Positions 18,961 to 42,479 of a DNA stretch of 64,000 nucleotides are shown in pieces. The notes below the pieces were generated by a model. The model was not told where the DNA came from. It was given only the letters and a program-made list of their open reading frames with translations, and did not search any database. The stretch spans positions 496,001 through 560,000 of the forward strand of contig CAWUHX010000215.1 of NCBI GenBank assembly GCA_963922205.1. The letters are read 5' to 3'. The position numbers and the translations under genes were made by a program. Source of the DNA: Romanomermis culicivorax. Taxonomy: Eukaryota; Nematoda; Enoplea; Mermithida; Mermithidae. Each line of letters starts with the position of its first letter. Within the stretch, counting starts at the first letter, position 1.

Positions 18961-19878
18961 AACGGGTCTGAAAACACCAGAAGGCTTGAAAAAGCTCAAA
19001 AACACGTAAATAAAGCACCTGTGAGCATTTTTAAGCGAAAAAAAACGACTTCGGGAAAATGGGGAAAAAAATTTTGATCCCTTTCCCCATTTGGGGAAAA
19101 GGCCCGGGGGGAAAAAAACAGTGAGGAGGATTGAGGAAGGCGAAAAAAAATTGAAAATTTGCCACGACAGAAAAGATACAGTAACTAGTCAAGTTTTGTC
19201 ATAGATTTTACAACAATAAACCCTTTTCAAATTTCATGACAATAGCAAACGCGTGAATTGCAATTTGAGTAGGGTTGTTTGTATTTTAAAATAAAAAATG
19301 ACTTATGGAGAGACAATGTCCGAGAAAATTCACCTTCTCATATAAAGAGTTGTGATAAGTATAAAATCAACCCTATAACTGAAAATCACATATTTGGTGT
19401 AACTTTATGCACTAGGAACGAAAATGATATTCATTTTGTCTGAAAATTGAAACTAGCATTGCTGCAGTAAGACAAAAGTTGACAATTAATGATTTTTGAC
19501 ATGCACGTCTCTCAACTTTTGCAAGTTTAGGTATGTCAAACATCGAGTTCTGGAAATTTACCCAATTTTAGGCCAATAAATGAACCACAATCAACTGTAG
19601 GATTAATTAGTGTAAAGTACGTATAAAGAATACAGTGGTGTTGGAAACATAGAATTTTGAGAGCAAAAATTGTCGTTTTTTCACAAGAACCTACTTCTCT
19701 ACCAAGCTCAGAAGCACCAAAAAATTCTCTATATAGTAAAAAGTTTACGATGCCTTCTACTTGTTGACAAAAAATTACAGAAATTCAACTAGCTATATGG
19801 GAATTCAACTAGCTACACAAAAAATACCCCTGTACAAAATATACACTTCAAAGTTTGCAGCCTTAACTGTGGGGGTGA
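18961..19878. other. Intergenic DNA leading into the outer inverted-repeat element
   Basis: AT-rich, with no gene. From about 19818 (ACACAAAAAATACCCCTGTA) the sequence matches the reverse complement of about 54945-54990, marking the outer end of the large inverted repeat. Confidence 0.5.
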
Positions 19879-20475
19879 TGTTATGCTTATTTCTCTGCTG
19901 TCCGAGGATGTCAGCAATATGACTCAAGTCCTATTGGCTTGTACTCAATCGACTACTGTAGGTCACTCAAAGGAGCTTCCTGTTAGTAACTAAACACAGT
20001 GCAACAGTCCTCAAGCAGAAATAAACACAAGCTTCAGTCACTAATAAATAACTGGAAACTCTAACTCTTGCAATCAAAGGGCACTCAGGGTCTCCCCAGA
20101 TGCCTCCTAAAGGTTTACACAAATACACAAAACTCACTATAATAATATCCAAAAGAGCTGGGGCTTTACCTTGGCTTGGCTCCCGTGTAATGCAGCTCCC
20201 CCTTCCGCTTAATGCGCAAGTAATAAAATAATAAATAATAAATAATAATAATAATAATAATATGTAAATTTGGGTGTTGGGCTGTCGACGCTTGCTGTTA
20301 CTAGGCAAAACAGAACAATACAATATACAGCGGACGTGACTCGCCCACGACACACCAAAATTACGAGAATGCAAGAATGACCAACATTTATCTTTTTTGG
20401 TCAAATCATAACTTTGTCAATTCACCAATTTTGCATAGATGTGGGATTGCTACTGCCCTAAGCACATCCCCAACA
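19879..20475 (-). repeat. 3' LTR of Gypsy element 1
   Basis: 597 bp, TGTTATG...CATCCCCAACA. Nearly identical to the LTR at 33727-34330, differing by scattered substitutions and small indels, including an AAT microsatellite of different length. On the minus strand the purine-rich CCCGAGGGA immediately precedes it and may be the polypurine tract. Confidence 0.93.
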
Positions 20476-21364
20476 TCCCTCGGGCCTTGAAACTGACCAA
20501 TGGGAGGTGAAGAATGAAACCGTGAGCAGGACTTCTACCTTTTACGGTGTGACCTACTACTGGATCCCAACTTCATAAAAAAGATTATGATCCGACCCGG
20601 AAGGGTGTATGGGTCATAATCATCCTGACCTGACCCCGAAGGGTGTAGGGGTCAAGACCGCCTCCAATGTCAAGTCTTTTTACAAGGTTACCCAGGTCCG
20701 TCCACTGAGATGCCGCGGCATGATCAATCACTGATCCAGCACCTGACCGATCGATGACTCTGCATCGACTTGACTTTTCCCTGGCTTCGCCAGCGTGCCT
20801 TGAGGCTCCTAGATACCTTCCTCCACTATTGATCATTTCGTCCCATTGAGTGATGTGGAGTGTCCTTGGTAGCAGCATTCCAATCCTTGCAGTAATTGGC
20901 TACTTTCGTCCGCTCCATCATCCCTTCAGTTCGCCGTTAATTTTTCATACGAAAAATTTGAAATATGATATGACGAACAAGTATTTACAAAACTAGTAGG
21001 GCGAAAAATATTGAGCAAAAAATTTTAAAATACGAGGCACAAATAACAAGAAAATAATAACAAGAAACATTTTACAAGGCAAAAATGATGAGAATCAAAT
21101 ACAAGAAAAAATAACAAATGCAAAAAATAAGTGAAAGAAATTTAAACCAAAAAGTGGCCTCAAGCGATGAGCTTGGCCAAAAATGAGATTTCAAAAGGCA
21201 ACAACACAACCAAAAGTTTAAATAATATTTTTGTATTTTGTGTTTTATAATGTTTTTGGGTTTTTTGTAACTTTATTATGTTTTTGTATTTTTGTGTTTT
21301 TTTAATAAATGAAATATGAATCAAGAATGGAGGATTTTTAGACCAAGATTTTTGCGGCTAAAAT
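20476..21364. other. Element 1 untranslated region before the 3' LTR
   Basis: No gene recognised. A minus-strand frame at 20585-20878 has no known domain. The part nearest 21200-21310 is T-rich and contains ATAAA-like signals that could serve 3' end formation for the accessory module. Confidence 0.5.
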
Positions 21365-22822
21365 TTATTGTTGCTGCCCCCCGCCTTGCTGCTGGCCTTG
21401 TTGATGACCTCCATGACCTCGGAATGCACCACGAGGGTGTTGTCCTTGGTATATACCTCGGCCACCAACATAACCAGCTCTGCCCCTGTTCAGATTGTTA
21501 AAATGAAACTGGCCTGGTTGGGCACCCCTTCCCCGTCCTCCACGAGCTCTACTAGCACCCTGTGGATGCTGTATAGGTTGCTGTTGTTTCGGAACGGTTC
21601 TGGAGGCTTGCCTAGTGCCAGTACTGGGGCCAGCGGAGACCTGGTTGGCTATACCAACAGTGGCTCCTTGACCACCAGTTTGACTGCTTGCGAGTCCGGG
21701 TGCTCGAAAGGTCTGTCCTGCATCGTTCGGAACTTTGCTAAATTTAGCAGTAGTTGGAGGACTTGGGCTACCTGACCTTTTGACATCCATCTCCGCCGCT
21801 TGTTGACTGTAATTATACATCACCAAGCGATAGGCAGTCTTAAAAACATCCGAAGCAGTGGCACTCCAATACTCCTGTAACAGCATGATGTTTGCAAACA
21901 CTTTGGCTGAGACTGATCGTTTACCGATCTGCTCAGCCCTAAGTGGCGCATAGTCAAGCATAAGGAATATCATCATACACAAGTATCTGACTGCTGTAAA
22001 TAGGACACTCGCTTGATATTCCGTGAGCCATTCAAGAACAATTTCACAAATGATCCTATCCCATAGTAGCTCTGGAATATTTTGCGAATCGTATAAAAAT
22101 CCTCCTTGGACATCAAACTGTGGCTGATACAGTTTGTATATAGTCCTGACCACTTTATTGACCATCAGCCAAATATCCGGAACTTCAAACTGCTCATCGC
22201 AGAAATAATTAGCTAATTCCAGTGTAGCAAAAGAAATTGGACCTCTGGATCTACTTTTATCTTTGGTAACTTGCCAAAAATCCAACAATACATCCTGGAA
22301 TAATTCCACCGTCATTTCTGGTGTTTGTTCATTTGTCTCAACAGTAACCAGAGTTAATGGCTTTATTTTTCCTGGTGTAAAGATTTGAACTTTTTGTCCT
22401 GCAACATGTGGCTTGCTAGGAGCTCCCTGCACCTTAGGCTGATGCCGTCCGGAAGCAGAGGTGTCCGTAGCCTGCAACACAAATTGTGTGGACTGACTCG
22501 TTGCCATAGATAAAGTATCTGTAGAGACAGTCTGCGACATAGGAGTAGTTGAAGATATGGTGGTCACGGATACCATTGCTGAAGCTGGAGCAGAAGTTTT
22601 GGCAGGTTTCGGCTGCGTAACCTTTGCAGGCTGCGCAATAGCGTTTTCTACCTTTTTCTTCTCCTGACAGGCTTTTGTTTTTCGTTTCTTTTTCAAGTTA
22701 ACAAAAATTTGCCTATCATTTAAGCCTTTTTCTTTCATATTTTTTATTGCCTCAGCAGTATAGTATCGGGGAACACCTTCTACATCCCAGGTCAAGGCTA
22801 AGACTTGAATTTCCTTATCTTC
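21365..22822 (-). CDS. Element 1 accessory ORF C: RGG-box protein, unknown function
   Basis: About 480 residues, third ORF of the module between pol and the 3' LTR. The N-terminal part has TWDVEGVPRYYTAEAIKNM and a basic KKKRKTK cluster. It is followed by a Ser/Thr/Gln/Pro-rich linker (~60-150), a predicted globular part (~150-350, ending near AYRLVMYNYSQQAAEM), and a Gly/Arg/Gln tail with RGGRGRG and repeated RG/GHGG/QQG units typical of RNA-binding RGG boxes. No catalytic domain recognised. The RGG tail resembles the nucleocapsid-like tail of this element's own gag, so an RNA-binding or particle-associated role is plausible but inferred. The call starts where the frame opens; no clear ATG is present. 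Confidence 0.75.
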   Translation of the reverse strand, partial: EDKEIQVLALTWDVEGVPRYYTAEAIKNMKEKGLNDRQIFVNLKKKRKTKACQEKKKVENAIAQPAKVTQPKPAKTSAPASAMVSVTTISSTTPMSQTVSTDTLSMATSQSTQFVLQATDTSASGRHQPKVQGAPSKPHVAGQKVQIFTPGKIKPLTLVTVETNEQTPEMTVELFQDVLLDFWQVTKDKSRSRGPISFATLELANYFCDEQFEVPDIWLMVNKVVRTIYKLYQPQFDVQGGFLYDSQNIPELLWDRIICEIVLEWLTEYQASVLFTAVRYLCMMIFLMLDYAPLRAEQIGKRSVSAKVFANIMLLQEYWSATASDVFKTAYRLVMYNYSQQAAEMDVKRSGSPSPPTTAKFSKVPNDAGQTFRAPGLASSQTGGQGATVGIANQVSAGPSTGTRQASRTVPKQQQPIQHPQGASRARGGRGRGAQPGQFHFNNLNRGRAGYVGGRGIYQGQHPRGAFRGHGGHQQGQQQGGGQQQ

Positions 22823-22823
22823 C

Positions 22824-23898
22824 TCAGCCAGGGGGCCGTGTCTCCACGACAGTATGGCTAGGTGTCCCTGCTGTCTGTTCTTCCTCCTTCTTCTTTACAC
22901 CTTCAGCATCCATGTACTCGCTAATATATGCTTGCTCATACACCTTCTGCTCATCCTGGGCAATACGAGTTTCTTCGGACTGCGCTTGACTTTCTACGCT
23001 GGACAAGTACTGACTCACATCCATAGATGTTTGTATCACTCGCGACGTAGGTAAGCCAGGCGGCGGTGGCAGCATTTCCGTCTGCAGCTGCGTCACAACT
23101 TGTGGTTGTGGTTGCAACTGCATGACAGAAGATGCTGTCATCACAGACTCGGCTACTTCGGAGTCCGCGATCGAAATATACAATAATGCGTCTTCGTCGT
23201 TGATCTTTTTGCAGCTTTCCTCTCCCAGGAGGGCGGAATCATCCTCATCCTCACTCTCCAATTCCATGACATCCTCGTCCACTTGACCTGACTGAACTGT
23301 GGGTTCATTATCAGGGTCAAGTATATCCGATTTCGTCCTGAAATTGGATTGTTTGGTTTCGTTACCATATGTAAAGGTAACCATAGGTAATTCCGTCGGC
23401 AGAGGCCTCCGGTGAATACACTTCTCAGGAAATTCATATGTATACAACGGATAGTCAGCCGGTATACATCTAATTTGACCCGTCTGAAGAGTAGGCATGT
23501 CTGGTGATAGGCCATATCGCAGCCACGGGGTTTTACTACCAAATTCAGCATAGTAGAATCTGACGTAGAAAAAGCAGTTGGCCCAATAATCCTTGTTATG
23601 GGTTATATTGTCCTTTGCTTTTTCTGTCGAAATCGGAGAGCCTATTTTGTTGGGCAAGCGCAACCTAATAGGCATAAAGCCAAACCTATTTTGCCAGGTC
23701 GTAACCCTTTTGCCTTTTACAGCATGTTCGGGTTCCATTGGCAGTAAAGATGCCACTATGCTGAAATTCTGCAAAACCCTATCATTGGTCTTCCATGCCA
23801 TCTTCTTTATCAACTCCGCATCCTCCTTCGAGTAGGATTTGGGGAAATTATAATTCAATAATTCCCTCAGTATGTAATCATACTCAGCATGGCTATGA
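22824..23898 (-). CDS. Element 1 accessory ORF B, unknown function
   Basis: About 345-355 residues. The conserved-looking N-terminal half (NYNFPKSYSKEDAELIKKM; WQNRFGFMPIRLRLPNKIG; TPWLRYGLSPDMPTLQTGQI) is followed by an acidic stretch (DEDVMELESEDEDDSALL) and a Gln/Pro-rich tail. No family recognised. The frame is open upstream of the first methionine to CTTTGTTTTCTAG at about 23899, a good splice acceptor, so it may be an exon rather than a separate gene. It overlaps no other frame and is followed 28 bp later by ORF C in another frame. Confidence 0.65.
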
Positions 23899-24052
23899 GG
23901 CTAGAAAACAAAGAATGGTAGAGGAATTAGGTTGCATGCCTTTTCCAACGCAGAAAACTTTGTTGAGTCCTCAAGTCCCCCATCCAGTGATCTCTGTCAT
24001 ACTTAGCCGTACCGGTGTCAATTTCCACTGGTTCACAGCAGTCCGTTCCGAG

Positions 24053-25399
24053 TTAAAACGATTGAAGCTGCTTCGACCAGTCCTGTCGAGGAGTTTTATT
24101 CATGGCAAGACCGGCTGTGATATACCACACAACATCTACCGGATCCGTCAATCTGAAAAACCAAACCCCTTGCAACATTTCTGTATGCAGTCGGTTTATC
24201 ACCTCGTTTGTTCTATTGACCTGTTGCTCCATTGTATCCATGTCCTCTGGATCACTTACGTCTTCCCACTGGTTCACCTTCTTTTTGCTTGGACCAGGTT
24301 TTAGCGCCTTGGGATAAACCCCAGACAGTAAAGTGTGGTCCGTAGCTTTAGCGGGATTTTTAATATCCGCAGGACACCCATACTCTGGCAAGTCATTATG
24401 AAATTGTGTAGCCCACCTGGCCATTACCTCTTGCCGCATCATGTGGTAAACCTTGAATAACTGCCTTTTTACGATGTCCTTCTCATCTACGAAGTTTCGA
24501 TCCTCGAACCCCGTTAGGTCTTGAGAGTACACCATATAAAAGTGGAAAGCCAAGGTTCTCACTTGGGCCGGCGACAAAATATCATGGGGGTATGTTGCCG
24601 TAACCCCACTTAATTCACGGCAAAACCCGTTGTGAAAAAACCCCAAAAATATGGCAATTGAGTAATAGGCATCTAGGCCAGCATACACAATTTCTGTATC
24701 CTGAATCGTGGGGGCCAAGAACTTTTCTCGAATCTTTTTGTCACCGAAGTCGCATTGATATTTGCCGACATCAGCCAAGTAAAATTCGGTGAAAAGTCCT
24801 TTTAACTCAAGGTTTTCAGGACACAATCCTAAATCATGAGCGTGATTGGCCATGGGCCCCGTCATCATTCTGACGCAAATTTCACAGTCCCAATATTTTC
24901 CAAATCCTTGGAGTATGCAGGCCTGTATAATTTTCGTCTTATCATGAGCCGAGGCCCCTGACCCGGATCCGTAGATGTTCAAAATTGCAACCAGATCGTC
25001 CACAACTTTGGAACCAACCAGGAAACGATCCACCGATGAAAGCAATGAAATCAAAAGATCCCATTCCTGCGGCTTCAATGTTGTAAGGTCGATGACAAAG
25101 CTGGAACCATCTATATGTGCAAATGACACCAGCCTAGCGAACTCTTTCCCTTCCAGGTTCTGGATCGCTACTCTTTATGGTATGATACATACCTCGGTCT
25201 TCTTGACCTTTTCCACGTCAAATCCGACAATGCCTAGCGCCCGAAACTGGCTTGTGGATAAATTGCTTCAGGATTGGTTCAACATTGCTGCTGTGGACCC
25301 ATTCCGGCTCCATCGGTCGTTGCGGCCAATAACCCATCGCGCCGGCGAACCATTGTTCAATTTCTCCGACGCGGACCAGACACTTGATGTTGTAGTCTA
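24053..25399 (-). pseudogene. Element 1 accessory ORF A: DEDDy 3'-5' exonuclease-like protein
   Basis: This ORF sits where env would lie in an errantivirus-type element, but shows the motifs of the DEDDy (WRN/RNase D-type) exonuclease fold. Exo I is IVGFDVEKV (D and E) at about 25230. A strand pair follows, with RVAIQNLEGKEF and SFVIDLTTLK. Exo II is FLVGSKVVDDLVAILNIYG, with its Asp near residue 40 of the main frame. Exo III is IVYAGLDAYYSIAIF (Y and D). The spacing LKGLFTEFYLADVGKYQ...YAGLDAY matches the helix before motif III in this family. All four acidic residues and the motif III Tyr are present. A further ~180 residues end near WSKQLQSF with no known domain. The 5' end lies just after TTTTGATTTTTAG (a splice-acceptor-like site at ~25400). 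The copy has a frameshift near 25240 and a TAA at about 25188, so it is decayed. Family assignment by motif reading only. Confidence 0.75.
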
Positions 25400-25400
25400 A

Positions 25401-26658
25401 AAATCAAAACGAATTTGCCCCTTGACCCTTTCAAAATGAGGCATTAGGCCACCACAACCAATTAAATGATCAAATTTGACCGGCACCAAATTAAAAGAAA
25501 GATTTAGCGTGGGGAAAAATAAATTAATAAGTGAGGTTAGGTGTCAAACTCATAAAGTAAGCAGGCCCAGTGGTTAACGCAAATGCTACACCAATTTTTC
25601 AGGAACCTCACATTTGCACCACCTCTCGCTTCTTGATGTCAGCCACCATCAATTTACCACTTACCCTAGCGATAACTTCACGCCTCGGTACCAAAATTAA
25701 ATAGTGAATAAATAACCAATCAAGGTTTTAATCAATTCAGGAAATAAATTTAGTAAACCAGGGGCTTTAATAAAACCAAAAATTTAAATGCTTCGGAATC
25801 GGATCCAAGGTAAAAACCATTAGATTTTGGCTTTTTAGGGCTGTAAATCCATTAGGTTTTTTCTTTTCACCTATCCTAAAATTTTTAGAAACTTTTCTTC
25901 AAACTCGTTTTAACCTTGGTTGGCCCATTCAGAAAATTGAGCGTGAAGAAATCATTCCTAAGACACCTAAATGGGCGAACTCATCCCACCTACCAAGAAA
26001 TAATTAAGTAAAACTTACCGTAGGTCAAAAAATAATGATTGTTTTGGCAGCCTTGCAGTTGGCCCGCCTTAACGTGGTCGAGGTGTGCACAATAATTTCG
26101 GGTGAAAGGCGCGACACCTAATTTCAACATTGAAATTAAAAAAAAATTTTTGAAATTTTTTCTAAATTTCGCGTTGTATCTTCTAAAGTAAACAAAATGT
26201 TAAAGAACATTTATCGTTACTTCAATATCAATACAATATATGAAATTACCAAAAATAATTTTATTGGGTCCTTGGGCTGGACGAAAAATTTTGTTCGGAA
26301 AGATTTGCGCGACGCAGAGCACAGAAAAAACACAACTTTTGAAATTGAAAATGAAAATTGGTCGTAAACCTCCCAAAATGTAACCCAAAAGATTTTAGCA
26401 TCGGGTGTACAAATTAACAATATTATTCTGAAAATTTGACCCTTCACTACACGAATTTAAAAAAAAAGTATTAAATGAATATAAATTGGTTAAATAACAC
26501 AAAAAATAAATTTATTCACATAAAATACACATATACTGCATTTTCCGCTAAAAATTTTTAGACACAGAAATAACGACCGGATGATCTTCGGTCTCCACGA
26601 GATTTCCAGTTGCATTAACTGGAGTATCCCGGAAGACCTGTGACATTTCGTGTCGAGA
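25401..26658. other. Element 1 spacer between integrase and accessory module
   Basis: About 1.25 kb with no supportable gene. It ends at a splice-acceptor-like TTTTTAG in front of ORF A. A spliced subgenomic mRNA, as used for retroviral env, would explain how the module is expressed; this is inference. Confidence 0.5.
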
Positions 26659-27396
26659 TCATCTGGTACCTTCGTATCGAAAGTGTTTTAGCCTACTTGC
26701 AGATACGACCTGCTTTTTAAGTGGGTTATTCCAATGCGCTATTGTGAGCACTTTTTCTTTCAATCTTTTATCATCCATGATGATATATGGTCCTTGCCAA
26801 GGTAACCCCAATTTTTTCTGTCTGTCAACCTTCAACAGCACCCAATCTTGTTTTTAATTTTGTTATCAAAATATTTCTTGCTGTCCTTAGCAGCTTTTTG
26901 TATGTTTCTGGCCATACTTTCATACAAAGTTGTAAGATGGGTAGCCAAAACATACTTATAAGCTTCATAGTCATTGGGCATGACTATTCTAAGTGCAGCA
27001 GTGAAATTGATACCAAAATTTGCTTCATGCCACCGCAGCAGTGAAAATGGCGAGCATTTCGTTGCTGCGTGGGGTGTGGCATTATATGCAAATACCACTG
27101 CACTGAGGTACCTTGGCCATTTATTGTTATCCTCAATTGCAACTTTTCGCGGGTGCTTTATTAGAGTTTGGTTAAATCTCTCAACCATACCATTACCCTG
27201 TGGGTGGTATGCTGTTGTGAAAATTTTTCTGCACTCTAACAGTTTACAGACTGCTTTCATAAGATCTGAGTTAAATCCAGATCCATTATCACTAAGAAGT
27301 TTTCTTCAGGTACCATGCCTAAATATCACATGCTCTAAGAATGCATCCACTATGGTTTCAGCCGTCTGATCAGGAATCAATATAGCTTCAACCCAT
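26659..27396 (-). pseudogene. Element 1 integrase core (second half) and C-terminal domain
   Basis: Continuation of the pol frame after stops. It contains MDYFTKWVEAI, the second catalytic Asp in LLSDNGSGFNSDLM, the catalytic Glu in GNGMVERFNQTLIKHP, the C-terminal helices (NIQKAAKDSKKYFDNKI) and a GPY/F-like ending (PWQGPYIIMD ... VVSASRLKHF). A TGA lies just before RKLLSDNG (about 27305), and the C-terminal piece at 26659-26841 is in a different frame. With the neighbouring frame it makes a full-length but broken integrase. Confidence 0.9.
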
Positions 27397-29229
27397 TTAG
27401 TGAAATAATCCATATGGGCGACATTCCCTCAAGGGAGCAATCCCTACTATTTCCACAGACACAATATCAAAGGGACCCTCCAGTATAATGGGTATCAATG
27501 GGGATATGGAGCTTTTACCTGGAGTAGCCACCTGGTAGACAGGCAAAAACTTCAACCAATTTCTGACATCTTTTTCAATGCCAGGCCACCAGAACCGCTG
27601 TTTGACAACACTCAGAGTTCTTTTGAACCCTTGGTGTGTCATTATAATGGCTCTGTGATATTGGTGAAGAATGCTGTCTCTGAGGGAATTCGGGACCACG
27701 ATCTGATCATGGCCATGTCCCTCAGTTTCCCTATAAAGAACTCCGTTATCCTCATAGAATCCACTATGATACTTCCTAGTGCTTTTGACCCCTAATCTTT
27801 CCCAAATTGGGGTAAGATTAGTGTCTTCTTTTTGCAATTGAGCGATAACCTTTAGATCAATTGGATAATTGATCTTATCATCATCGTTTTCTTCATCTTC
27901 TCCTTCTTTCACCTCTTCAAACTCCTTCTTTTTATTTGGGAAAAGCCAAGCAATGTTTTCAGGATCAATTGGTACAGATATAACCTGTTCCTGATTTCCT
28001 GCACTCTGATCCTGAAGTTTTGCTTGTCTTCTAGTTGTGACTGCATCAACTACCGTAAGCTTCTGCATTTCATCTCTGCTCTGCAATATATCTTTGGTAG
28101 TTGGTGCAATATTGTCCTTTCTTACCCTCAATTCCTGGATATCCGTCAATTCCTTGGTCTGCTCGGGGACAATCTTTTCGTCTCTACTTTCAATTTCTTC
28201 ATCCCTTATCCTCTGAAATTGTTGTACCAATATTTGGCTTTCAATTTCATTGATTTGAGTTCTGAAATTAGGAAATAGAATTTTGAAGACATATTCCCAT
28301 TTTGGTGGGTTCTTGTTCTTAGCGTCTTCGGGTTCATCTTTCCTTGAGAGGAAATCAGCCATTGCATTTTGTCTACCAGGCACATACTCCAATCTATGAT
28401 TAAATTGATTTATAATGGAATACCATCTTTTCAATTTATCATTGGTTTGAGTATTAACTTTAATTGATAAAAGAGGTTTATGATCAGTTTTGATCAATAC
28501 TTTTTGCCCAAACAAATAGTGCCAGTAAACCTTAAGACCATAGACGACCGCTAGGCATTCTCGCTCTGTAGCACACCACTTCCTCTCGTCTTCCTTAAGG
28601 ATTCGGCTGCTATAGGCTATTACCCATTGGTCATCTTTAGTCTTCTGATAAAGTACTGCTCTCAGTGCGGTTCCACTGGCATCTGTTTGGAGAATGAACT
28701 CCGCAGTTCCATCCAAAACATGATACCGTAGAAATGGCACTGAGGTGAGTGCTTTTTTCAGTTCTTCAAACACTTGGCGGTGTTCCTCTGTCACTCGGAA
28801 CTTCTTCTTTCCCCTAGCGGTAAGCTTATACAACGGTTCTGCAAGATTTGCAAGGTTTGGGATAAATTTCTTACACCATTGCAGTATCCCCAAAAATTGT
28901 TGCATATGCTTAATGCTATTGGGAAATTCGAATTCCGTAATAGCCTTCACTTTTTTCGGATCTGTTGAGATTCCATTTTCGTCCAGTATGTGTCCAAGAA
29001 AATGAACACTTTTTGGAAGAAATTCACACTTCTCCAGTTTAAGTGTTAGCTTTGCTTTCCGAAGAGCTTGCAAGACCAATTCTAAATTCTCCAAATGTTC
29101 TTCATAAGTCTTGGAGAACACAATGATATCATCAATATAAACCAGACAGACTCTCCAGACTAGACCATGCAACACCCTCTCCATCATTCTTTGAAACTCT
29201 AGAGGTGCATTTTTAAGTCCGAAAGGCAT
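27397..29229 (-). CDS. pol: Element 1 pol: RT (C-terminal half), RNase H, integrase N-terminus
   Basis: Longest intact frame of the element (610 residues). Domains in order: RT palm with MPFGLKNAP and catalytic YIDD (CLVYIDDIIVFS, ~30); thumb (FLGHILDENGIS, ~75); RNase H with TDASG (~180), ERECLAVVYGLK (~222) and KTDHKPLL (~245); a charged linker (~290-470); integrase zinc finger with histidines near HQYHRAIIMTHQGF (~530), lacking the usual CX2C pair (LPVYQVATPG); then the start of the catalytic core, FDIVSVEIVG. The first core Asp is Glu here (GAA), so this integrase would be catalytically impaired. The N-terminal RT half lies upstream in other frames. Confidence 0.93.
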   Translation of the reverse strand: MPFGLKNAPLEFQRMMERVLHGLVWRVCLVYIDDIIVFSKTYEEHLENLELVLQALRKAKLTLKLEKCEFLPKSVHFLGHILDENGISTDPKKVKAITEFEFPNSIKHMQQFLGILQWCKKFIPNLANLAEPLYKLTARGKKKFRVTEEHRQVFEELKKALTSVPFLRYHVLDGTAEFILQTDASGTALRAVLYQKTKDDQWVIAYSSRILKEDERKWCATERECLAVVYGLKVYWHYLFGQKVLIKTDHKPLLSIKVNTQTNDKLKRWYSIINQFNHRLEYVPGRQNAMADFLSRKDEPEDAKNKNPPKWEYVFKILFPNFRTQINEIESQILVQQFQRIRDEEIESRDEKIVPEQTKELTDIQELRVRKDNIAPTTKDILQSRDEMQKLTVVDAVTTRRQAKLQDQSAGNQEQVISVPIDPENIAWLFPNKKKEFEEVKEGEDEENDDDKINYPIDLKVIAQLQKEDTNLTPIWERLGVKSTRKYHSGFYEDNGVLYRETEGHGHDQIVVPNSLRDSILHQYHRAIIMTHQGFKRTLSVVKQRFWWPGIEKDVRNWLKFLPVYQVATPGKSSISPLIPIILEGPFDIVSVEIVGIAPLRECRPYGLFH

Positions 29230-29295
29230 AACTTTAAACTGATATAGGCCTTCCGGACATATAAATGCAGTTTTCTCCTTGCTACTTTCCTCAAG

Positions 29296-29487
29296 TCAGA
29301 CTTGCCAATATCCAGACTTTAGATCCAAAGTGGTATAAAATTTGGCATTACCTATACAATCCAAATAATCATCCATTCTAGGTATAGGATACCTATTGTC
29401 CTTATTAACTTCATTTATACCTCTGAAATCCACAACTGGTCTGGTGGTACCGTCCTTTTTCCCAACTAGGAAAGGGGAGCAGCCCAC
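29296..29487 (-). pseudogene. Element 1 RT fingers/palm fragment
   Basis: Contains LVGKKDGTTRPVVDFRGINE and KFYTTLDLKSGYWQV, the RT motifs 1-3 of Ty3/Gypsy polymerases including the first catalytic Asp (LDLKSGYW). It is separated from the main pol frame by a break at about 29230-29296 and from the upstream part by a frameshift at ~29470. Confidence 0.92.
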
Positions 29488-30416
29488 GGTGACTGGCTGG
29501 GTTCAATAACTCCTTTATCTAACATGTCTTGGACTTGAGCTCTAATCCCTAATCTTTGGTTAATGGGAGCTGTGTAATAATGTTTCGCCACTGACATTGC
29601 ATTACCAGTATCAATTTTGCACGTAAGATACGGTGTTGTAGTTAAGGGATCATTGGGTAAGCTGAAAACATCCCTGTATCTAGACAATTTTGCCACAGCT
29701 TTTTCCTTTAATTCCTCATCAATATCAGCCTTCGAGATCATTTTATATAGCGCTTCCCTAAATGCCAATGCATCATGCACTGACATTCTGGGAGTGGCAT
29801 TAAAATTATCTTCAACACTAAATATCCCACAACTCGTACTTTGTACTTCTGATACTCCTGAATTTTCTTGTAATATTGAGTCACAGTAGCCTACAATCTG
29901 ATTAGGTTGCAATTGGCATCCTGAACCGGTATTATTGGAAATCATCAGAACAAAGTCTTCCCATTTACCATCAACCAGTGTGCTATCAACTCTGAATTTC
30001 TTTTCTTCTTTATTTCCCTTTATGACCAAACAATACAGATCTGTTTTAGACGATTGTTCCCATAATCTTGCCTTAATAAGCACATCAGTTCCGTGTGGTA
30101 TGTACACTTTTGTACATGATACCACTGGAACCACTATACCTAATTGGCAGATCCTGAGGTATTGATCCTCTTCAGGACTTGAATGTACTATAGGTGCTTC
30201 CCCTATACAATCAATAGCTTGTATATGACTCGCGTGATCTTTAGGTACAACACTTATAGCTTTCCCAACTCCATTAAGCTTCATGATACCTTTACCAAAA
30301 TCTATCATTGCTCCAACATCTGGATGTGCTAAAAAATCCATTCGAATTATGAGGTTCTCCTCAGCATTTGGAATGATTATGGCTTTCACCAAGAAAACTC
30401 CAAATTCACAGTGCAT
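29466..30416 (-). CDS. Element 1 protease C-terminal region and RT N-terminus
   Basis: 316 residues. The beginning (FGVFLVKAIIIPNAEENLII; DFLAHPDVGAMIDF) corresponds to the C-terminal half of a retropepsin-like domain (I(L)G.DFL). A linker follows, and then the run-up to the RT: YRDVFSLPNDPLTTT, IDTGNAMSVAKHYYTAPINQ, MLDKGVIEPSQSPWAAPL. It overlaps the next RT piece by about 20 bp in another frame, consistent with a small indel. Confidence 0.88.
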   Translation of the reverse strand: MHCEFGVFLVKAIIIPNAEENLIIRMDFLAHPDVGAMIDFGKGIMKLNGVGKAISVVPKDHASHIQAIDCIGEAPIVHSSPEEDQYLRICQLGIVVPVVSCTKVYIPHGTDVLIKARLWEQSSKTDLYCLVIKGNKEEKKFRVDSTLVDGKWEDFVLMISNNTGSGCQLQPNQIVGYCDSILQENSGVSEVQSTSCGIFSVEDNFNATPRMSVHDALAFREALYKMISKADIDEELKEKAVAKLSRYRDVFSLPNDPLTTTPYLTCKIDTGNAMSVAKHYYTAPINQRLGIRAQVQDMLDKGVIEPSQSPWAAPLS

Positions 30417-30422
30417 TTTGAA

Positions 30423-30935
30423 TTATATGTAACCATGTGCATGTACTACTGCACCATCAGCAACAGTGACTTTTAGTATCACAGGATATCTGGTATATTC
30501 TTCATCAAAAGCTTCCTTAGGAAACCATGAAGACATCACCAAACACTGAGCACCAGTATCCACTAAAGCCTTGGTGTTAGTATTACATATGGTCACATTA
30601 ATGTGAAATGGGAGAGTTCGAGGAAACTTAGAAAACCTTAATCGTTCCTCCTGATTAGGAATTATCCCATGCTTGAAGGCCTTTGTAACCTTTGAGTAAT
30701 CTTCTTTCATCATGGCACACTTCAATACTCCAGGCCATTTCATCTCACTAACACCTTGACCCGTAGTCGCAATGCTATTAACACTTCCAGCAGATCCCAA
30801 CTCTGTCTGACTCGACGTGGATGGTTGACTACTGGAAATGGCTTGCACACTTGGGCTAGGGTTACTGATTTGAACCTGACCTTGAGGGGGAGCTGTGATC
30901 ATCAGCTGTTGGCTAGGAGCTGGCAGTTGTAGTGC
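30423..30935 (-). CDS. Element 1 aspartic protease N-terminal region
   Basis: About 170 residues. A Pro/Gln/Ser-rich linker precedes PFHINVTICNTNTKALVDTG, with the catalytic DTG followed by AQCLVMSS. Retropepsins process Gag-Pol into mature proteins. A stop separates it from the next pol part. No ATG begins the frame; upstream is a stop, so it is normally made as part of a fusion. Confidence 0.88.
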   Translation of the reverse strand, partial: ALQLPAPSQQLMITAPPQGQVQISNPSPSVQAISSSQPSTSSQTELGSAGSVNSIATTGQGVSEMKWPGVLKCAMMKEDYSKVTKAFKHGIIPNQEERLRFSKFPRTLPFHINVTICNTNTKALVDTGAQCLVMSSWFPKEAFDEEYTRYPVILKVTVADGAVVHAHGYI

Positions 30936-30938
30936 CAA

Positions 30939-31604
30939 TAGAGTTGCTCATTCCGCAATCTATTCTGGTTATTGTTGGGCACCCTGTTGATGGCAATTTG
31001 TGTGGGGAAATCGACATGCAAATCGGACAAATGGACGACCAGCAGCGCAGACATTTGCATAGAAGTGGAGCGCCAAAGAAAGACTAAAAATGATAGTGAA
31101 AATCATTCTTCACAATAATCATTATTTTTATAATATTCTTGTTATTGCTGGCGTCCATAAATATAATTCCCAGCACTTCGACTTGTTGTTACATATTATT
31201 CACTGTGGTATACCACATTCTTTTTACATATTTCGTCGGAAGTATTGTTTAATACATTTGTTTATTTATTTAGATTAATCGTATCGACGAAGGCGGAGGG
31301 CCAGAGGCCCAGGCCCCAGCTTGCACCCAGCAAGCCTTGGGAAACCCTTTAAGGGTTATACTCAAGTAAGTTTATCCCTGAGGGGATTCCTTGTCTCAGC
31401 TAGGAGACTGCGGAGCTCTTTGGTGAGGCCCCCCACTTAAGTTTTAAGTAATCTTTGTTGTTGTAGGTCGGGGATAATCGGACTGTTGCACTATCACGGA
31501 GGCTTAGCCAAGGGATTAGTTCTAACAGGTCAGATCAGACCCGAAGCCTCAATCTTTTCTTATGCCTCTTAAGAAAAGACCTGCACAACATAATCAATGA
31601 ACTG
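30939..31604. other. Non-coding insertion or decayed gag-pol junction of element 1
   Basis: About 670 bp between the RGG tail of gag and the protease. On the minus strand near 31020-31060 there is a cysteine-rich snippet ([18 protein letters not shown]) reminiscent of a zinc-binding end of gag. The AT-rich part (31090-31290) and the GC-richer part (31290-31540) look unlike the rest of the element and may be a small insertion. No terminal repeats were found. Confidence 0.4.
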
Positions 31605-33708
31605 TCAATAAGTATCATAATCCATAGTATCACCATAATAACCTATGGGATGAACTCCTCTACTGCTCCCGCCAACAAATCCTCCTCTAAAGCCTCCAAA
31701 CTGTTGCCTGAAACCTCTGTTTCCCCCATATTGATTATCCCAATTACGTCCTTGTGCATTTTTCCATTGAAGGGTTTTACATTCCGACGTGTCATGAGAA
31801 TTATTTCTATTTTCTGTGGTATCGACAATATGGTTACCTGAACTCGTTTCCACCAGGTTTTTGGGGTTTGCCCTTATTAACTTTGGCAGAAATTTCATTC
31901 AATTTAGCATCAGTCTTTTGGCTTATCTCCTGATAACACTGAGCCAACTTAGCAATCTCCTGTGACAACTTTGCTAGAATAGAATCACTGCTAGGTTCCT
32001 CAGGCTCTTTTCCCTTTTGCGGAGAAGTAGCCATTTGAGTCCCCTGTGAGTTATTCTCTTCTACAGAAGTATCAGAATCCTTCTTTTCTGACACTAGGAT
32101 CGGGGCTTGCTTCTCTCTCCTTGCTTGCTGTCACATAGCTTTATTTTGAAACTGCCTTTGTGGGGCATTGTCAAATTTATTTCTACCAACATAAGCCACT
32201 TCAGCTTGCCCTTCCCCCATCCTCACTTCATTTATCACACTTGGAGATTCCACAGTTCCTCTCTTTTTATAAGCAGCTGTATTCCGCTTATCAATCTTGT
32301 GCACATCCTCTGCTAGATCATGCCATGTTTCATACTTCTCTCTCTGATCTAGCAACTCCATCTGATATTCTTCAGATGCTTTATACAAAAAGGTATCAAT
32401 TATGAAGCTATCTCTGAATTCTTCAGTCTTATTAGGATACAATCTATCTACTAGCACACTAATTCTCTTGAGGAATTTCACTGGAGGTTCATCAAATTCC
32501 TGCTTTATGTTCATCAGCTCCCTTGTTTGCATACCGACATTTGAATCTGGAGCTTGCACTTTGAGTAACTTCCTTCGGGCTTTTTCATAACTTTTGAACC
32601 TTTTACAGTAGCTTTTGGTACACCCTTAGAAAGTGCTCGTAAGGCAGCCAGCTTCATTTTATCGGTAGTCTTTGACGTAAACTCTGCCTCTAAATCATTT
32701 AGGAAGCTGAGAACTTGTGTCTCAGTCATGTCATAGAGGAGTAGCTTTGGCTTTACAGCCTTCACTATATCTGACACAGCAGGCTCCAATCCATCCACTG
32801 AGGAGTTATCAGAATCTGATGAATTTCCTCATGTGGACTTTTTGGATTGTTTGTGCTTCGACGTAGTATGTTTGCTTTCCTTATGACTACCTGCTGCTTC
32901 CTCATCAGCTTCTTGGAAAAATTGAGCAACTATATCACTTGCTTGTTCTCGAACAGCAAGCGGTTCAGTTACCCATTTTTCCATAGAAGCCTTTGATTTC
33001 ACAACAGGTTTGACTGTGAACTTTTGCTCTGACTCATCTGCTTCCATCTGCCGTAACCTTTGGTCATTGGCAATACGGGTTGCAGACATCATTGGCAAAG
33101 TGACTCCGACCATCAAATCGGCCATTTTGTCAATTTTGACATTAAGTCGTTGAATTTCATCGTCCTTTTGACTCATTTCAAATCGTAAATCATCCAATGG
33201 ATCATGACAGTAATCATCCCGAATATTATCCAAATTATTGTTAACGTATTTGCGATGATACGTATCAAATCGTTGTCGAGGTCGTCGAAAACGTTCCTCT
33301 CTAAATTGATCAAATGGATCAATATGATCCTCGGCCTTCTATCCATAAGCCCCAATAATTGAGCATCTCTATCATCGGCAGTTAATAGTTCCTTTGCCGT
33401 GGCCATATTATTGGTATTATTACTGGCCATGCTACGGAATTGGGCGCACTTACTGGGTCCAATTTTACCTTAGCCCGCTGGCTTATGGCACTTGAGTTGG
33501 AGCCTTTCCGCTTGCTCGTAGTATTAGATACCAGGGGCAATGGGAGAGATTTATCCATCTCATCATGCCTTACACCAGGCGGAGTCCTCGGTAAAGTCGT
33601 ACTAGAGGCTAAATCCTCAGCATTTTTGGACATTTTGAGTCCTAAGTCTTTGTAAAAACCTTTAGGTTTTTGACACCTCGAGTGACTCTGCGCTCTTCCA
33701 TATTGCAA
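31605..33708 (-). pseudogene. gag: Element 1 gag (capsid and RGG-type nucleocapsid), broken into frames
   Basis: Several consecutive minus-strand frames together form gag. The 5' part includes MSKNAEDLASS and HDEMDKSLPLPLV. Next comes a coiled-coil-like helix (FEMSQKDDEIQRLNVKIDKM). The capsid has ELMNIKQEFDEPPVKFLKRI, then TEEFRDSFIIDTFLYKASEE, the LK..(F)...I...IDTFLYKA pattern of Ty3/Gypsy capsid. A second helical part (LSQEIAKLAQCYQEISQKTD) precedes a Gly/Arg/Phe-rich tail (GGNRGFRQQFGGFRGGFVGG), which replaces the usual CCHC knuckle. At least five breaks separate the frames at roughly 33.4, 33.2, 32.8, 32.53 and 32.1 kb. Confidence 0.8.
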
Positions 33709-33726
33709 GTGTCAGAAGCCACCACT
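33704..33726 (-). promoter_or_regulatory. Possible primer-binding site of element 1
   Basis: Directly after the 5' LTR on the minus strand the sequence reads AG then TGGTGGCTTCTGACACT. A TGG two bases from the LTR end is where the tRNA 3'-CCA pairs in Gypsy elements. I could not assign the tRNA. Confidence 0.4.
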
Positions 33727-34330
33727 TGTTATGTTTATATCTCTGCTGAAGTCCGAGGATGTCAGAAATATGACTCAAGTCCTATTGGCATGTACTCAAT
33801 CGACTACTGTAGGTCACTCGAAGGAGCTTTCTGTTAGTAATCAACTAAACACAGTGCAACAGTCCTTAAGCAGAAATAAACACAACCTTCAGTCACTAAT
33901 AAGTAACTGGAAACTCTTACTCTTGCAATCAAAGGGCACTCAGGGTCTCCCCAGATGCCTCCTAAAGGTTTACACAAATACACAAAACTCACTATAATAA
34001 TATCCAAAGGAGCTGGGGCTTTACCTTGGCTTGGCTCCCGTGTAATGCGGCTCCCCCTTCGGCTTAATGCCCAAGTAATAAAATAATAAATAATAAATAA
34101 TACTAATAATAATAATATGTAAATTCGCGTGTCGGGCTGTCGATGCTTGCCTTTACTAGGCGAAACAGAGCAATACAATATACAGCGGATGGGACTCGCC
34201 CACGACACACCAAAATTATGAGAATGCGAGAATGACCAACATTTCTCTTTTTTGGTCGAAGCGTAACTTTGTCAATTCACCAATTTTGCATAGATGTGGG
34301 ATTGCTACTGCTGTAAGCACATCCCCAACA
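33727..34330 (-). repeat. 5' LTR of Gypsy element 1
   Basis: 604 bp, TGTTATG...CATCCCCAACA, matching the LTR at 19879-20475. It is followed by GTGA, the target duplication. Confidence 0.93.
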
Positions 34331-34712
34331 GTGATACAGGGGGTTGTAACAGTTCCCCAACACTGGGTGGTAGCTTCTCTACCACCGACTGCACAGCCCT
34401 GCATCACCTGTTGCAACTGCAGCAGTGCCGGTCACAAAAATCCAGGTCTGGGCCCCTGACTTGGATGAGCAACATCAAGTCTACAGGTTCAGAGGAAAAT
34501 GCGCGATGGCACCTTTTGCACATCATCACATTCTCCTCCTAGGGAAGTGTGACGTCCTCGTCACAACATCCCTCCCCCTGCTGAGGCAGGCAAGGGGCCC
34601 CCCTGGTACGGTCACCATGTAATGGTTCTCGCACACTATGTAGCTTCTCTACCACCGACTGCACAGCCCTGCATCGCCTGTTGCGACTGCAGCAGTGCTC
34701 GTCACAAAAATC
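34331..34712. repeat. Left-arm insertion with a 75-bp direct duplication
   Basis: GTAGCTTCTCTACCACCGAC with TGCACAGCCCTGCATC and TCACAAAAATC occurs at about 34370-34445 and again at 34640-34712, about 270 bp apart. The segment interrupts the left arm relative to the right arm. No gene. Confidence 0.75.
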
Positions 34713-36215
34713 GGGTGTAGAAAGTAAAATCAACGATGTAATAGGATCTCAATTTTGTTAAGCGAGTGGGGGCGATACAGAGGGTGTGGAAAGTACGCCC
34801 AAAGCTTCAATGTGTAAAATTCTACTTCCATGTGGAAACTAGGCTCGAAGCTTTAATGGGTAAAAATCGACCTAAATGTAGAAAGTATGCCTTGGCCAAC
34901 TTGACTCTGACATTAAAGTTGATGACACAATATCTCTATTGAAAAAATAAAAAAAAACACCTGAGGATCATAGAATCTAACAGCTTTACTCACTTTTATG
35001 CAATTTAAAAAACACCTGAGGGTCATGGAAGCTAACAATCTGGTAGTTTTACTCGTTTCATACAAAAAATTTTGTTCCAGGACACATTTTTTATCAACTC
35101 GGACATGTTTTTTGATAATTCCCTATGCTTAAGCATTATTTTCGGGACACATTTTTCACTGTTTCGGGGCACAATTTTATATGCGTTTTGTAAAAAAATA
35201 TGCCCCGAAATAATTAAAAACGTGTCCCAAATACAATGCTTAAGCATAGGGAATCGTCAAAAAACACGTCCCGAGTAGGTAAAAAATGTATCCTGAAAGA
35301 AAATTTTTTGTGAAAAACGAGTAAAATCGTTAGATCGTTAGATTCCATTAGCCTCAAGTTTTTTTTTTAATTTTCCCAAGAATGCAGGACAAACGGATCA
35401 CTAAAGTCAGCAAATATAATATCGATTTTTTCAAAAAATTTTTACATTTTAAATAAAAGTTTAATGGTTTCACAAAATTTCTGTACAATTTTAGAGAGTA
35501 AGACAATTAGATTGTTATACTGGCGTAAAATCTAATGTAACGTCCGCGAGTCATACCGTCTAACGATCTAACGAGTTAACTTGTTTTTACAAAAAATTTT
35601 GCCCTGGACTCATTTTTTAAATACTCGGGACACGTTTTTGAATTATTCCCTATGCTTAACCATTGTTTTCGGGACACGTTTTTTACTCTTAGGGGTATGA
35701 TCTTTTTACAAAACATATGCAAAGTCTTCAGGTCGTTAGATTCTACAAAACACATGCAAAATCTTTAGATCGTTAGAATTTATAGAAAATGTAAAATTGT
35801 GGCCCGAAAAAAAATTTTCTATAAAAAATCGAGTAGAACGTTAGATAGTTAGATTTTAAGTCACGCTAAAATAACGATTTCAAGAGTAGGATCTAACAAT
35901 CTAACGGTTTTACTCATGAAAACTGTACAAAATCTTCACCAAAAAATGTACAATTTTTTTTAAAGATTGATACTGCAGCTACTGATTATAATATTTTCAA
36001 TGATCACTTTGTCCTACATTTCTGAAACATTTTAGCATTCAGGACGTCAATTGTTAGATCGTACTTTTACAATCCAGGACAAAATAAAATTACCATACAG
36101 TATAAAATTACAAATTTTTAAAAAATTATTGTGTGCTAAACAACTTCCTCTACTGGCAGAAGAAGTCTCAAAAATATTTTTTTAGATCTTTTGTCCGGAC
36201 TTTAAAATCTAATAG
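34713..36215. repeat. Left arm of the large inverted repeat
   Basis: Starts GTGTAGAAAGTAAAATCAAC; this end matches the reverse complement of about 54895-54922. Iterated units with GTAGAAAGTA, AAAGCTT and AAATTCTACTTCC are followed by AACGATCTAACGG-type units and a long hairpin. No gene. Confidence 0.8.
35047..35332. repeat. ~285-bp hairpin inside the left arm
   Basis: The two halves are reverse complements: ACTCGTTTCA(T)ACAAAAAATTTT ... CCCTATGCTTAAGCATT ... GGGACACATTTTT ... TTTCGGGGCA, then TGCCCCGAAATAATT ... GTGTCCC ... AATGCTTAAGCATAGGG ... AAAAATTTT...AAACGAGTAAAAT. The stem is around 130 bp with a loop near 35175-35200. A sister hairpin lies in the right arm (53832-54118), and a single half-stem at about 35580-35700. 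Confidence 0.85.
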
Positions 36216-37254: not shown

Positions 37255-37640
37255 ATACTTAGAAATACAATTTATAGGGGGTATGGTTAAGCATACAGAT
37301 TTTAGAGTTATCGTAATAGTAGAATTATGGTAATATTTGGATTATGGTAACAGTAGAATTAGGCTAATATTTGGATTATGGTAACAGTAGAATTAGGGTA
37401 ATATTTGTCTTACTGTAGGTTGAAAAAGGAAAATCGATGTGCAATGAAAAATGGAAAGTGAAAATTTATGTGAAAATGGATATACAAAAATCAATGTGGA
37501 ACAAAAATGGAAATCGAAAATAGATGTAGAACAAAAAATGGACATACAGTATGCATGTACTGTACAAAAAAGTAAGGCAAAAAATTGATCTGGGAAAAAC
37601 TGGAAATACACTATGCATGTAGTGTACAAAAGTGACAAAG

Positions 37641-38572: not shown

Positions 38573-39739
38573 TCAAGGGTTTCGAGGGTAGAAAGGGGTT
38601 GTCTCGTTTACATGTACCGTAAATGTGATATTCTTATGGGGGTGTTTGAGTGTAACATTGGGGTACATGAAATTTGTAACTGTATAGGGCCCGTTTTGGG
38701 GAGGGAGGAATTTGGGAGTCAGCCCTTGTTTACACGAATGATTTTTGTAGAGAATAAGATCACCTGCCTTGTAATGCATGTTCTGAACATGCTTGTTATA
38801 CTGACGGGTATAGTGATCTTGGGCTTTTTGTAAGCTTTTCTGTACGGTTGAGAGTGCTTCTGTAGAATGCGATTTTACACGAAGGGCGTAATCATCTAAA
38901 TCAACCATGTAGGACGTGGGGAAAAAATTTAAAGCTGCGTCTGATGGAAGATTAGCCTGTCTACCATGGAGCAATTCAAATGGGGGATACGAGGTGCTAT
39001 CATTCTTATGAATGTTGATCGAAAAAACGGCATATGGTAGATAAGTATCCCAATCAGTGTGATGTGAATTGATGTACATGCGGATACGGGTGGCTAGGGT
39101 CTGGTTGCATCGCTCAACTTCCCCATTGGCAATGGGATTATATGGGGTGGTATGGATTTTCTGAGTGTTGCATAAGCTAGTGATCCGTGAAAAGAGATCA
39201 GATACAAAATCGGAGCCACAACCACAATGGATGATTTTTGGGGAGCCATGATGGCAAACAATTTTGGTTACGAATAATTTGGCGATAGTGGCTGCAGTGA
39301 TATCAGGGGTCGGAAATGCCTCTACATAATTTGTGAAATAGTCGATGAAAACGACAATGAATCGGTTGCCGTCTTCAGTGAGGGGTAAGGGCCCCATGCA
39401 ATCAACACTGACTCTATCCAATGGGCCAGTCGGCTGAATTCGTACCAGATTTGCATGTATTCTGTGTGGGAGGGCTTTTTGTGTCTGGCATGGGTGGCAA
39501 GTTTTGCAATACCATTTGATATCACGGCTCATTTGGGGCCAAAAATATTTTTGCCTGAGCAAGTGTAAAGTTTTCCTGGCAGTGAAATGACCTGTGAATT
39601 TGCTGTCATGATGAGAGGCAATGAGATGCTGGACTTGTGACTTGGGGATGTACAGTTTTGCCTGCTTGTTGATTATATGAAAGAGGATGTTTTGATGCAC
39701 TGCGAATTTGATCATAGTAAGGGGGTGTTTTTTGGCCAT
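38573..39739 (-). CDS. Element 2 integrase
   Basis: About 388 residues. HHCC zinc finger (HHDSKFTGHFTARKTLHLL ... CKTCHPCQ). Catalytic core: first Asp in RVSVDCMGPLPL. The second position reads IIHCGCGSDF, where families have (S)D.G..F, so the second catalytic Asp is replaced by Gly. The Glu is present in NGEVERCNQTL. The C-terminal part (STSYPPFELLHGRQ; YKAGDLILYKN; NGPYTVTNFMYPNVTL) closely parallels the fragment at the start of the window. The frame ends about 30 bp before the 3' LTR. The lost Asp makes this copy catalytically dead. Confidence 0.94.
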   Translation of the reverse strand: MAKKHPLTMIKFAVHQNILFHIINKQAKLYIPKSQVQHLIASHHDSKFTGHFTARKTLHLLRQKYFWPQMSRDIKWYCKTCHPCQTQKALPHRIHANLVRIQPTGPLDRVSVDCMGPLPLTEDGNRFIVVFIDYFTNYVEAFPTPDITAATIAKLFVTKIVCHHGSPKIIHCGCGSDFVSDLFSRITSLCNTQKIHTTPYNPIANGEVERCNQTLATRIRMYINSHHTDWDTYLPYAVFSINIHKNDSTSYPPFELLHGRQANLPSDAALNFFPTSYMVDLDDYALRVKSHSTEALSTVQKSLQKAQDHYTRQYNKHVQNMHYKAGDLILYKNHSCKQGLTPKFLPPQNGPYTVTNFMYPNVTLKHPHKNITFTVHVNETTPFYPRNP

Positions 39740-41478: not shown

Positions 41479-41479
41479 T

Positions 41480-42478: not shown

Positions 42479-42479
42479 A

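What the first reader, a model, noticed from the sequence alone, without database searches (positions are those of the whole stretch)
24053..25399. LTR retrotransposon carrying a DEDDy 3'-5' exonuclease-like gene in the env position
Between pol and the 3' LTR of a clearly bounded Gypsy element lies an ORF with GFDVE, VGSKVVDDL and YAGLDAY in the right order and spacing for a WRN/RNase D/Mut-7-type exonuclease. All catalytic acids and the motif III Tyr are kept. Retrotransposons are not known to me to carry this activity. Possible roles are trimming cDNA or RNA ends, processing the tRNA primer, or interfering with small-RNA silencing; these roles are speculation.
Basis: partly seen in the sequence, partly recalled or inferred. 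Interest (0 to 1): 0.82.

Follow-up and report, generated by a model that had tools for sequence, protein, structure and literature searches.

The report
Nematode retrotransposon carrying an exonuclease gene
A family of jumping genes in a mosquito-parasitic roundworm carries, where a virus would keep its envelope gene, a conserved gene for an enzyme that probably trims nucleic-acid ends; similar genes are known in rotifer jumping genes, but here several related families have kept it.

The parts
33727..34330 (-). 5' LTR (604 bp, TG...CA on the minus strand)
   Evidence: 33 mismatches in 592 aligned columns to the 3' LTR, K2P 0.058
19879..20475 (-). 3' LTR (597 bp)
34331..34334 (.). target-site duplication GTGA (right)
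19875..19878 (.). target-site duplication GTGA (left)
31608..33338 (-). gag region by position only, broken into several open pieces (no Pfam gag match in the two pieces scanned)
30426..30938 (-). aspartic protease piece (weak PF13650 7.6e-4, PF13975 1.9e-3)
26662..29502 (-). RT - RNase H - integrase, broken by frame changes in this copy
   Evidence: RVT_1 8.1e-21, RT_RNaseH 1.6e-29, Integrase_H2C2 4.7e-15
26019..26130 (-). likely ORF3 exon 1, from an ATG to a GGTAAGT donor; short frames with the shared motif GQPQ.RQ(N/D)N occur at the same place in families D and E
25397..26018 (-). inferred intron (donor GTAAGT; acceptor TTTTGATTTTTAG in 17 of 20 fetched copies, TTTTTAG in 19 of 20)
   Evidence: no RNA evidence
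21368..25396 (-). ORF3 main exon (one 1356-aa open frame, counted from 25403, in intact copies; broken by stops, frame changes and gaps in the window copy)
24056..25174 (-). longest open piece of the exonuclease part in the window copy (373 aa, motifs II and III)
25211..25219 (-). motif I, D-V-E
24995..24997 (-). motif II catalytic D (second D of KVVDDL)
24671..24685 (-). motif III Y-A-G-L-D
21368..21667 (-). RG/Q-rich C-terminal tail of ORF3 (11 RG/GR pairs in the last 100 residues here, 15 in the intact copy L022)

Best explanation
The element is a Ty3/Gypsy LTR retrotransposon of R. culicivorax whose env-position gene (ORF3) makes a large accessory protein of about 1390 aa from a spliced RNA. 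Its N-terminal part is a catalytically competent DEDDy 3'-5' exonuclease domain of the RNase D / WRN / Nibbler-Mut-7 type; the middle is of unknown fold; the C-terminus is an RG-rich tail likely to bind RNA. Shown here: the position, intact copies, the fold (by prediction), the conserved catalytic residues, purifying selection, and relatives in further families. Inferred from sequence signals: splicing. Inferred from residue conservation: that the enzyme is active. Inferred from the fold's relatives and the RG tail: that it works on 3' ends of RNA (or ssDNA). My single most likely mechanism (about 35%) is that it degrades or trims the 3' ends of small or aberrant RNAs that silence the element. 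Next (about 25%) is trimming of the element's own RNA or cDNA ends.
Against: No activity, expression or RNA data. A+C against B gives only 57.6% in hhalign and A-B no real BLASTP match. The same fold also serves as RNA binder: EXD1 (inactive, per PMC5408684 passage) and Egalitarian (RNA binder, from the entry titles) are among the matches. Copies were chosen from the better matches, which biases the replacement ratio downwards; single changes are less depleted (0.37-0.50 for the exonuclease part). One hydrophobic stretch (ORF3 aa 1141-1163) leaves a membrane role open. Substrate and anti-silencing role are guesses.
Confidence: 0.7

Rival explanations
1. RNA-binding, not catalytic in function: ORF3 is mainly a nuclear RNA-handling protein that gets unspliced genomic RNA out of the nucleus or packages it, as CERV does for the C. 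elegans element Cer1; the exonuclease fold serves as an RNA grip.
For: CERV is also an env-position, spliced product of a nematode Gypsy/Ty3 element and is required for gRNA export (PMC10309623, listing and passages). ORF3 has an RG-rich tail. Fold relatives EXD1 and Egalitarian appear among the structural matches.
Against: All catalytic residues are kept over the five families' representatives, which a pure RNA grip would not need; EXD1 is called catalytically inactive (PMC5408684, passage). [quoted passage not shown]
Confidence: 0.2
2. Silencing-independent replication enzyme: the exonuclease trims 3' ends of the element's RNA, tRNA primer or cDNA, or removes mismatched ends during reverse transcription (a proofreading aid for a 14-kb element).
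Against: ORF3 is not part of the pol frame and its likely message is separate. No measure of copying fidelity was made.
Confidence: 0.25
3. One-off capture of a host exonuclease gene by a single copy, without function.
For: The window copy is broken; the host has a PF01612 gene of its own (the exon in L073 looks Mut-7/Nibbler-like, motif recalled).
Against: 110 scored copies, the same layout in 20 of 20 fetched, intact frames, purifying selection, and relatives at 23-41% identity downstream of other Gypsy-type pol frames.
Confidence: 0.01
4. Env-like fusion or membrane protein with a chance resemblance to DEDD motifs.
For: Position; one hydrophobic stretch near the C-terminus.
Against: Fold match, motif conservation, no Pfam envelope match in the parts scanned.
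Confidence: 0.03

Closest known systems
Bdelloid rotifer Juno and Vesta LTR retrotransposons with DEDDy ORF3 (Rodriguez, Kenefick, Arkhipova 2017, PMC5408684)
   Same: RNase D-like DEDDy ORF as ORF3 of retrovirus-like LTR elements; present in several families; function unknown.
   Different: Nematode host. Here the residues are canonical D, E, D, D with Tyr, whereas the rotifer paper says DEDD is changed to DEED. ORF3 here is about 1390 aa, apparently spliced, with an RG tail. [quoted passage not shown] its section names no DEDDy ORF) found mostly neutral variation; here shared changes in the DEDDy gene are depleted in replacements. Sequence kinship to the rotifer ORFs could not be tested.
Athena / Terminon elements of bdelloid rotifers
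   Same: Retroelements carrying DEDDy ORFs (same paper, passages).
   Different: Penelope-like, not LTR elements.
Cer1 / CERV of C. elegans (PMC10309623)
   Same: Nematode Gypsy/Ty3 element; env-position gene that is not an envelope; made from a spliced mRNA.
   Different: CERV has 517 aa with H, M and G domains; no exonuclease mentioned; sequences not compared here.
Nibbler / Mut-7, WRN, RNase D, Pol I exonuclease domains
   Same: Fold and catalytic residues.
   Different: Cellular proteins; 11-21% identity in the listed VIA rows (Nibbler 15%). The host exon L073 keeps W..RPL, which family A lacks.

Membership tests
DEDDy 3'-5' exonuclease (PF01612-type) | Motif I DxE | tested here: met
   19 of 19 rows with letters in A7 (5 of 24 rows have gaps there; the window's open piece is one of them, its motif I lies before a stop), five families; 28 of 28 unique family-A sequences
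DEDDy 3'-5' exonuclease (PF01612-type) | Motif II D | tested here: met
   22 of 22 rows with letters (2 gaps)
DEDDy 3'-5' exonuclease (PF01612-type) | Motif III YxxxD | tested here: met
   Y in 23 of 24 rows (H in L068, family C), D in 24 of 24
DEDDy 3'-5' exonuclease (PF01612-type) | RNase H-like DEDD fold | tested here: met
DEDDy 3'-5' exonuclease (PF01612-type) | PF01612 profile score | tested here: inconclusive
   No match for family A or two D members; E 18.6-22.7 bits in three members, C 19.4-31.8 in three, B 42.6 in one; cut-off 23.6
DEDDy 3'-5' exonuclease (PF01612-type) | 3'-5' exonuclease activity | not testable with these tools
   needs an assay
Ty3/Gypsy LTR retrotransposon | LTRs with TG..CA, TSD, order PR-RT-RH-IN | tested here: met
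   primer site and subgroup not tested
Bdelloid DEDDy-ORF3 elements | DEDDy ORF between pol and 3' LTR | tested here: met
   20 of 20 fetched copies have the ORF after a pol frame; LTR start motif found downstream in 19 of 20
Bdelloid DEDDy-ORF3 elements | ORF3 sequence in the same clade as Juno/Vesta/Athena DEDDy ORFs | not tested
   rotifer sequences not held; searches listed none at E 1 or less, with limited sensitivity
Bdelloid DEDDy-ORF3 elements | dUTPase between PR and RT | tested here: inconclusive
   no Pfam match at E 1 or less in 29469-30416; broken copy only
CERV-like env-position gene | Expression from a spliced mRNA | tested here: inconclusive
   donor, acceptor and in-phase ATG exon in families A, E, D; no RNA
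CERV-like env-position gene | H, M and G domains | not tested
   CERV sequence not compared
Envelope glycoprotein | known fusion-protein domain plus TM | tested here: inconclusive
   no Pfam envelope family in the parts scanned; one hydrophobic stretch aa 1141-1163

The most novel reading that the evidence does not exclude
Several Gypsy families of a nematode from a lineage reported to lack piRNAs carry, as a selected gene, an active 3'-5' exonuclease with an RNA-binding tail that destroys or trims host small RNAs directed at them: a retrotransposon-encoded counterpart of viral silencing suppressors, related in fold to the cell's own small-RNA trimming enzymes (Nibbler/Mut-7).
Probability: 0.25. 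Interest if true: 0.87.

Novelty: new variant of a known kind. Interest (0 to 1): 0.6.

Why it matters
Enzymes outside the standard set are unusual in LTR retrotransposons. In rotifers the DEDDy ORF was described with its activity and role left open (PMC5408684, passages). Here, in a second animal phylum, representatives of several Gypsy-type families keep the same catalytic residues while the rest of the domain has drifted to 23-41% identity (B further), some copies are young (0.22% apart), and the gene is under constraint similar to pol. That makes the question of what a retroelement gains from a 3'-5' exonuclease directly testable with one purified domain and RNA from a nematode used in mosquito control.

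Tried and rejected
Direct profile and PDB sequence searches of the window ORF and of an intact copy: no exonuclease match (one search listed weak alcohol dehydrogenases, best E 0.064); the PDB search with profile A4 gave nothing relevant. AlphaFold from family A alone: useless (pLDDT 33.1); redone with 24 rows from five families. Alignment A6, with bacterial RNase D rows, misaligned motif I of RNase D and was dropped; A7 has no RNase D rows. Viral contigs: no match for the window protein, and alignment A7 has no stretch fit for a pattern. Viral structure library: named matches are giant-virus 3'-5' exonucleases and phage polymerases, general fold matches. Protein database: only R. culicivorax proteins, plus weak RNase D hits for family B. 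Host origin: of three PF01612 exon-like places fetched, L071 and L072 read as family B, L073 looks like a host Mut-7/Nibbler-type exon (motif recalled) and is not close to family A by eye. The closest subfamily inside DEDDy cannot be settled: the Nibbler and Aquifex Pol I rows differ by less than 1 in Z. Whether ORF3-less relatives of the element exist was not searched.

Literature: listings show no report of a DEDDy ORF in a nematode LTR element; only open-licence PMC papers are searched, so absence is weak evidence. Papers: PMC5408684 (outline with abstract, passages, sections 3.1 and 3.6), PMC10879605, PMC10309623, PMC4323106, PMC10989877 (passages); the rest search listing only.

[quoted passage not shown] element length, splice-site counts, and the C/D order corrected; the pol frame was tested in all 20 fetched copies.

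Full report
What is there. The window lies in an unnamed assembly of 359,112,060 bases in 595 contigs. A published R. culicivorax long-read assembly has 359.1 Mb in 595 scaffolds (PMC10879605, passage), and the two proteins found with the window ORF are from R. culicivorax; I take that as the host. On the minus strand an LTR element spans 19879-34330 (14,452 bp). Its LTRs are 19879-20475 and 33727-34330, and the 4-bp duplication is GTGA. The LTRs differ at 33 of 592 aligned sites (K2P 0.058). Pfam finds a weak aspartic protease, then RT, RNase H and integrase in Ty3/Gypsy order. The gag region upstream is assigned by position only.

The region in question. From pol towards the 3' LTR the window copy has open pieces at 25174-24056, 23900-22827 and 22894-21368. 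The three motifs of a DEDDy exonuclease are there in order, but a stop separates motif I from the others in this copy. In other copies the whole is one open frame. One search scored 110 of 3063 first-look candidates, the window's own included: 75 of 110 list no stop in the exonuclease part, 25 an open frame of at least 1300 aa, and 15 exactly 1356, one of these with a stop listed inside the match. I fetched 20 copies with flanks, chosen by me from the plus-strand matches and mostly with long frames (20 of 110). In 20 of 20 a pol frame (95-100% identical to that of L022) precedes ORF3, and an exact LTR-start motif was found downstream in 19 of 20. The two closest copies differ by 0.22% over ORF3; the window copy differs by 5.6% from its nearest. 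So the family has been active recently and the window copy is an older, broken one.

Expression. The ORF3 frame begins at a stop that is itself the AG of a 3' splice-site-like sequence (TTTTGATTTTTAG in 17 of 20 of L021-L040; TTTTTAG in 19 of 20). Upstream, a GGTAAGT donor is present in 20 of 20, and before it a short frame beginning with ATG (MSKLGVAPFARNYC...FLTD) ends in the phase that ORF3 needs in 18 of 20 (L038 lacks it, L039 lacks the ATG). In families E and D, one locus each, the equivalent short frames share GQPQ.RQ(N/D)N and end at phase-1 donors; a TTTTTTAG acceptor-like site was listed for E, while for D the script's pattern found none, though the frame opens after ...TTTTAAG. This points to a two-exon, spliced gene. 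There is no RNA evidence. A second donor-like site (25665 in the window) is kept in 19 of 20; its use is unknown.

Is it a DEDDy exonuclease? Pfam and PDB sequence searches with family A found nothing. A PF01612 search of the genome gave 80 matches, none of which I recognised as family A. I fetched 12 of these 80: 10 are family B (about 609-aa frames; L043 scores 42.6 bits) and 2 are family C (L048 31.8 and L051 30.5 bits; cut-off 23.6). Family C aligns with family A by BLASTP at E 2e-19, 22% over 249 aa, and by hhalign at 98.3%; A plus C against B gives only 57.6%. A genome search with C then brought families D and E. E is 39-41% identical to A over about 310-360 aa and its best member scores 22.7 bits against PF01612; D is 24-25% identical to A, and two members have no Pfam match. 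In the 24-row alignment A7, D and E of motif I are kept in 19 of 19 rows with letters, D of motif II in 22 of 22, Y in 23 of 24 and D of motif III in 24 of 24. Over one representative per family only 13 of 206 positions are invariant, and all five catalytic residues are among them.

Selection. In 28 unique exonuclease sequences (38 of 40 loci plus the window were usable; duplicates removed; one of the 28 is the window's own), changes shared by four or more copies are 10 replacement to 40 silent, by two or three 19 to 40 (and 1 stop), single ones 98 to 69 (and 4 stops), against 2.87 to 1 expected without selection. In 20 copies the normalised ratio of shared changes is 0.21 for the exonuclease part, 0.095, 0.18 and 0.23 for the rest of ORF3, and 0.19 for the pol part; single changes give 0.37, 0.41, 0.47, 1.16 and 0.65. 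The 1.16, with 28 stops, comes from the last part and reflects frame-shifted copies. Copies were picked for similarity to the protein, which lowers the ratio; the between-family conservation does not depend on that choice.

Relatives. Integrase lies upstream of ORF3 in one locus each of families C, D and E, and RNase H with a sub-cut-off integrase zinc domain upstream of B. A-E is the closest pair in both integrase and exonuclease (62% and 40%); A-D 45% and 24%; A-C 48% and 23%; A-B 25% and no real match. The simplest reading is that A, C, D and E inherited pol and ORF3 together; B is an older branch or a separate capture. Most family-C rows are fragments or list stops.

How it may work. Conserved catalytic residues argue for an active enzyme. 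The fold's relatives trim 3' ends of RNA (Nibbler, RNase D, RRP6) or ssDNA (WRN, Pol I) (general knowledge). The tail has 15 RG/GR pairs in its last 100 residues in L022 and 11 in the window copy, typical of RNA-binding tails (general knowledge). Clade I/II nematodes are reported to lack piRNAs and to control transposons with RdRP- and Dicer-made small RNAs; DNA methylation machinery is reported present in R. culicivorax, and HENN-1 not conserved in T. spiralis (PMC4323106, passages). Unprotected small-RNA ends would be good substrates, hence the anti-silencing reading as first guess. Replication-end trimming, proofreading and a CERV-like RNA export role (PMC10309623, passages) remain open.

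Known or new. DEDDy ORF3s exist in bdelloid Juno and Vesta elements and in Athena/Terminon elements (PMC5408684, abstract, passages, two sections). The rotifer authors note a DEED change in the motif. [quoted passage not shown] their discussion says the same of the extra ORFs in general. Here the residues are canonical and constraint is clear. I could not compare the sequences. The listings show no nematode report. Verdict: real, conserved, a new variant of a known kind.

Noticed in passing
38573-45481, minus strand: A second Ty3/Gypsy-type element in which a Monjiviricetes-type fusion glycoprotein piece (43887-42868, PF24664 E 3.4e-6, 25.7 bits, just under the cut-off 27) lies between gag and protease/pol, and a hydrophobic segment is in one frame with the aspartic protease (42478-41480). 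An envelope-type gene before pol is unusual, from general knowledge.
   Followed up: partly
L054:1733-2350 (C130:66018-69217): By eye, the family-C copy has an LTR-like stretch resembling the window element's LTR (shared translated strings) between its RNase H side and integrase, perhaps a solo-LTR insertion.
   Followed up: no
34939-35723: Nested inverted repeats of 42-133 nt, 75-84% complementary, near the element's 5' end.
   Followed up: no
34370-34442 and 34640-34712: Two 73-nt direct copies, 95% identical, just outside the right TSD.
   Followed up: no
37282-37417: Short array of repeats spaced 17 nt.
   Followed up: no
G000 genome-wide: 80 PF01612 matches, many in frames of about 608-610 aa. 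Of 15 of them read, 12 are family B, 2 family C and 1 looks like a host gene: the domain is spread by retroelements here.
   Followed up: partly
C104:307729-308847 (L033): One copy has an ORF3 frame running on to 1741 aa and no LTR-start motif in the stretch fetched.
   Followed up: no
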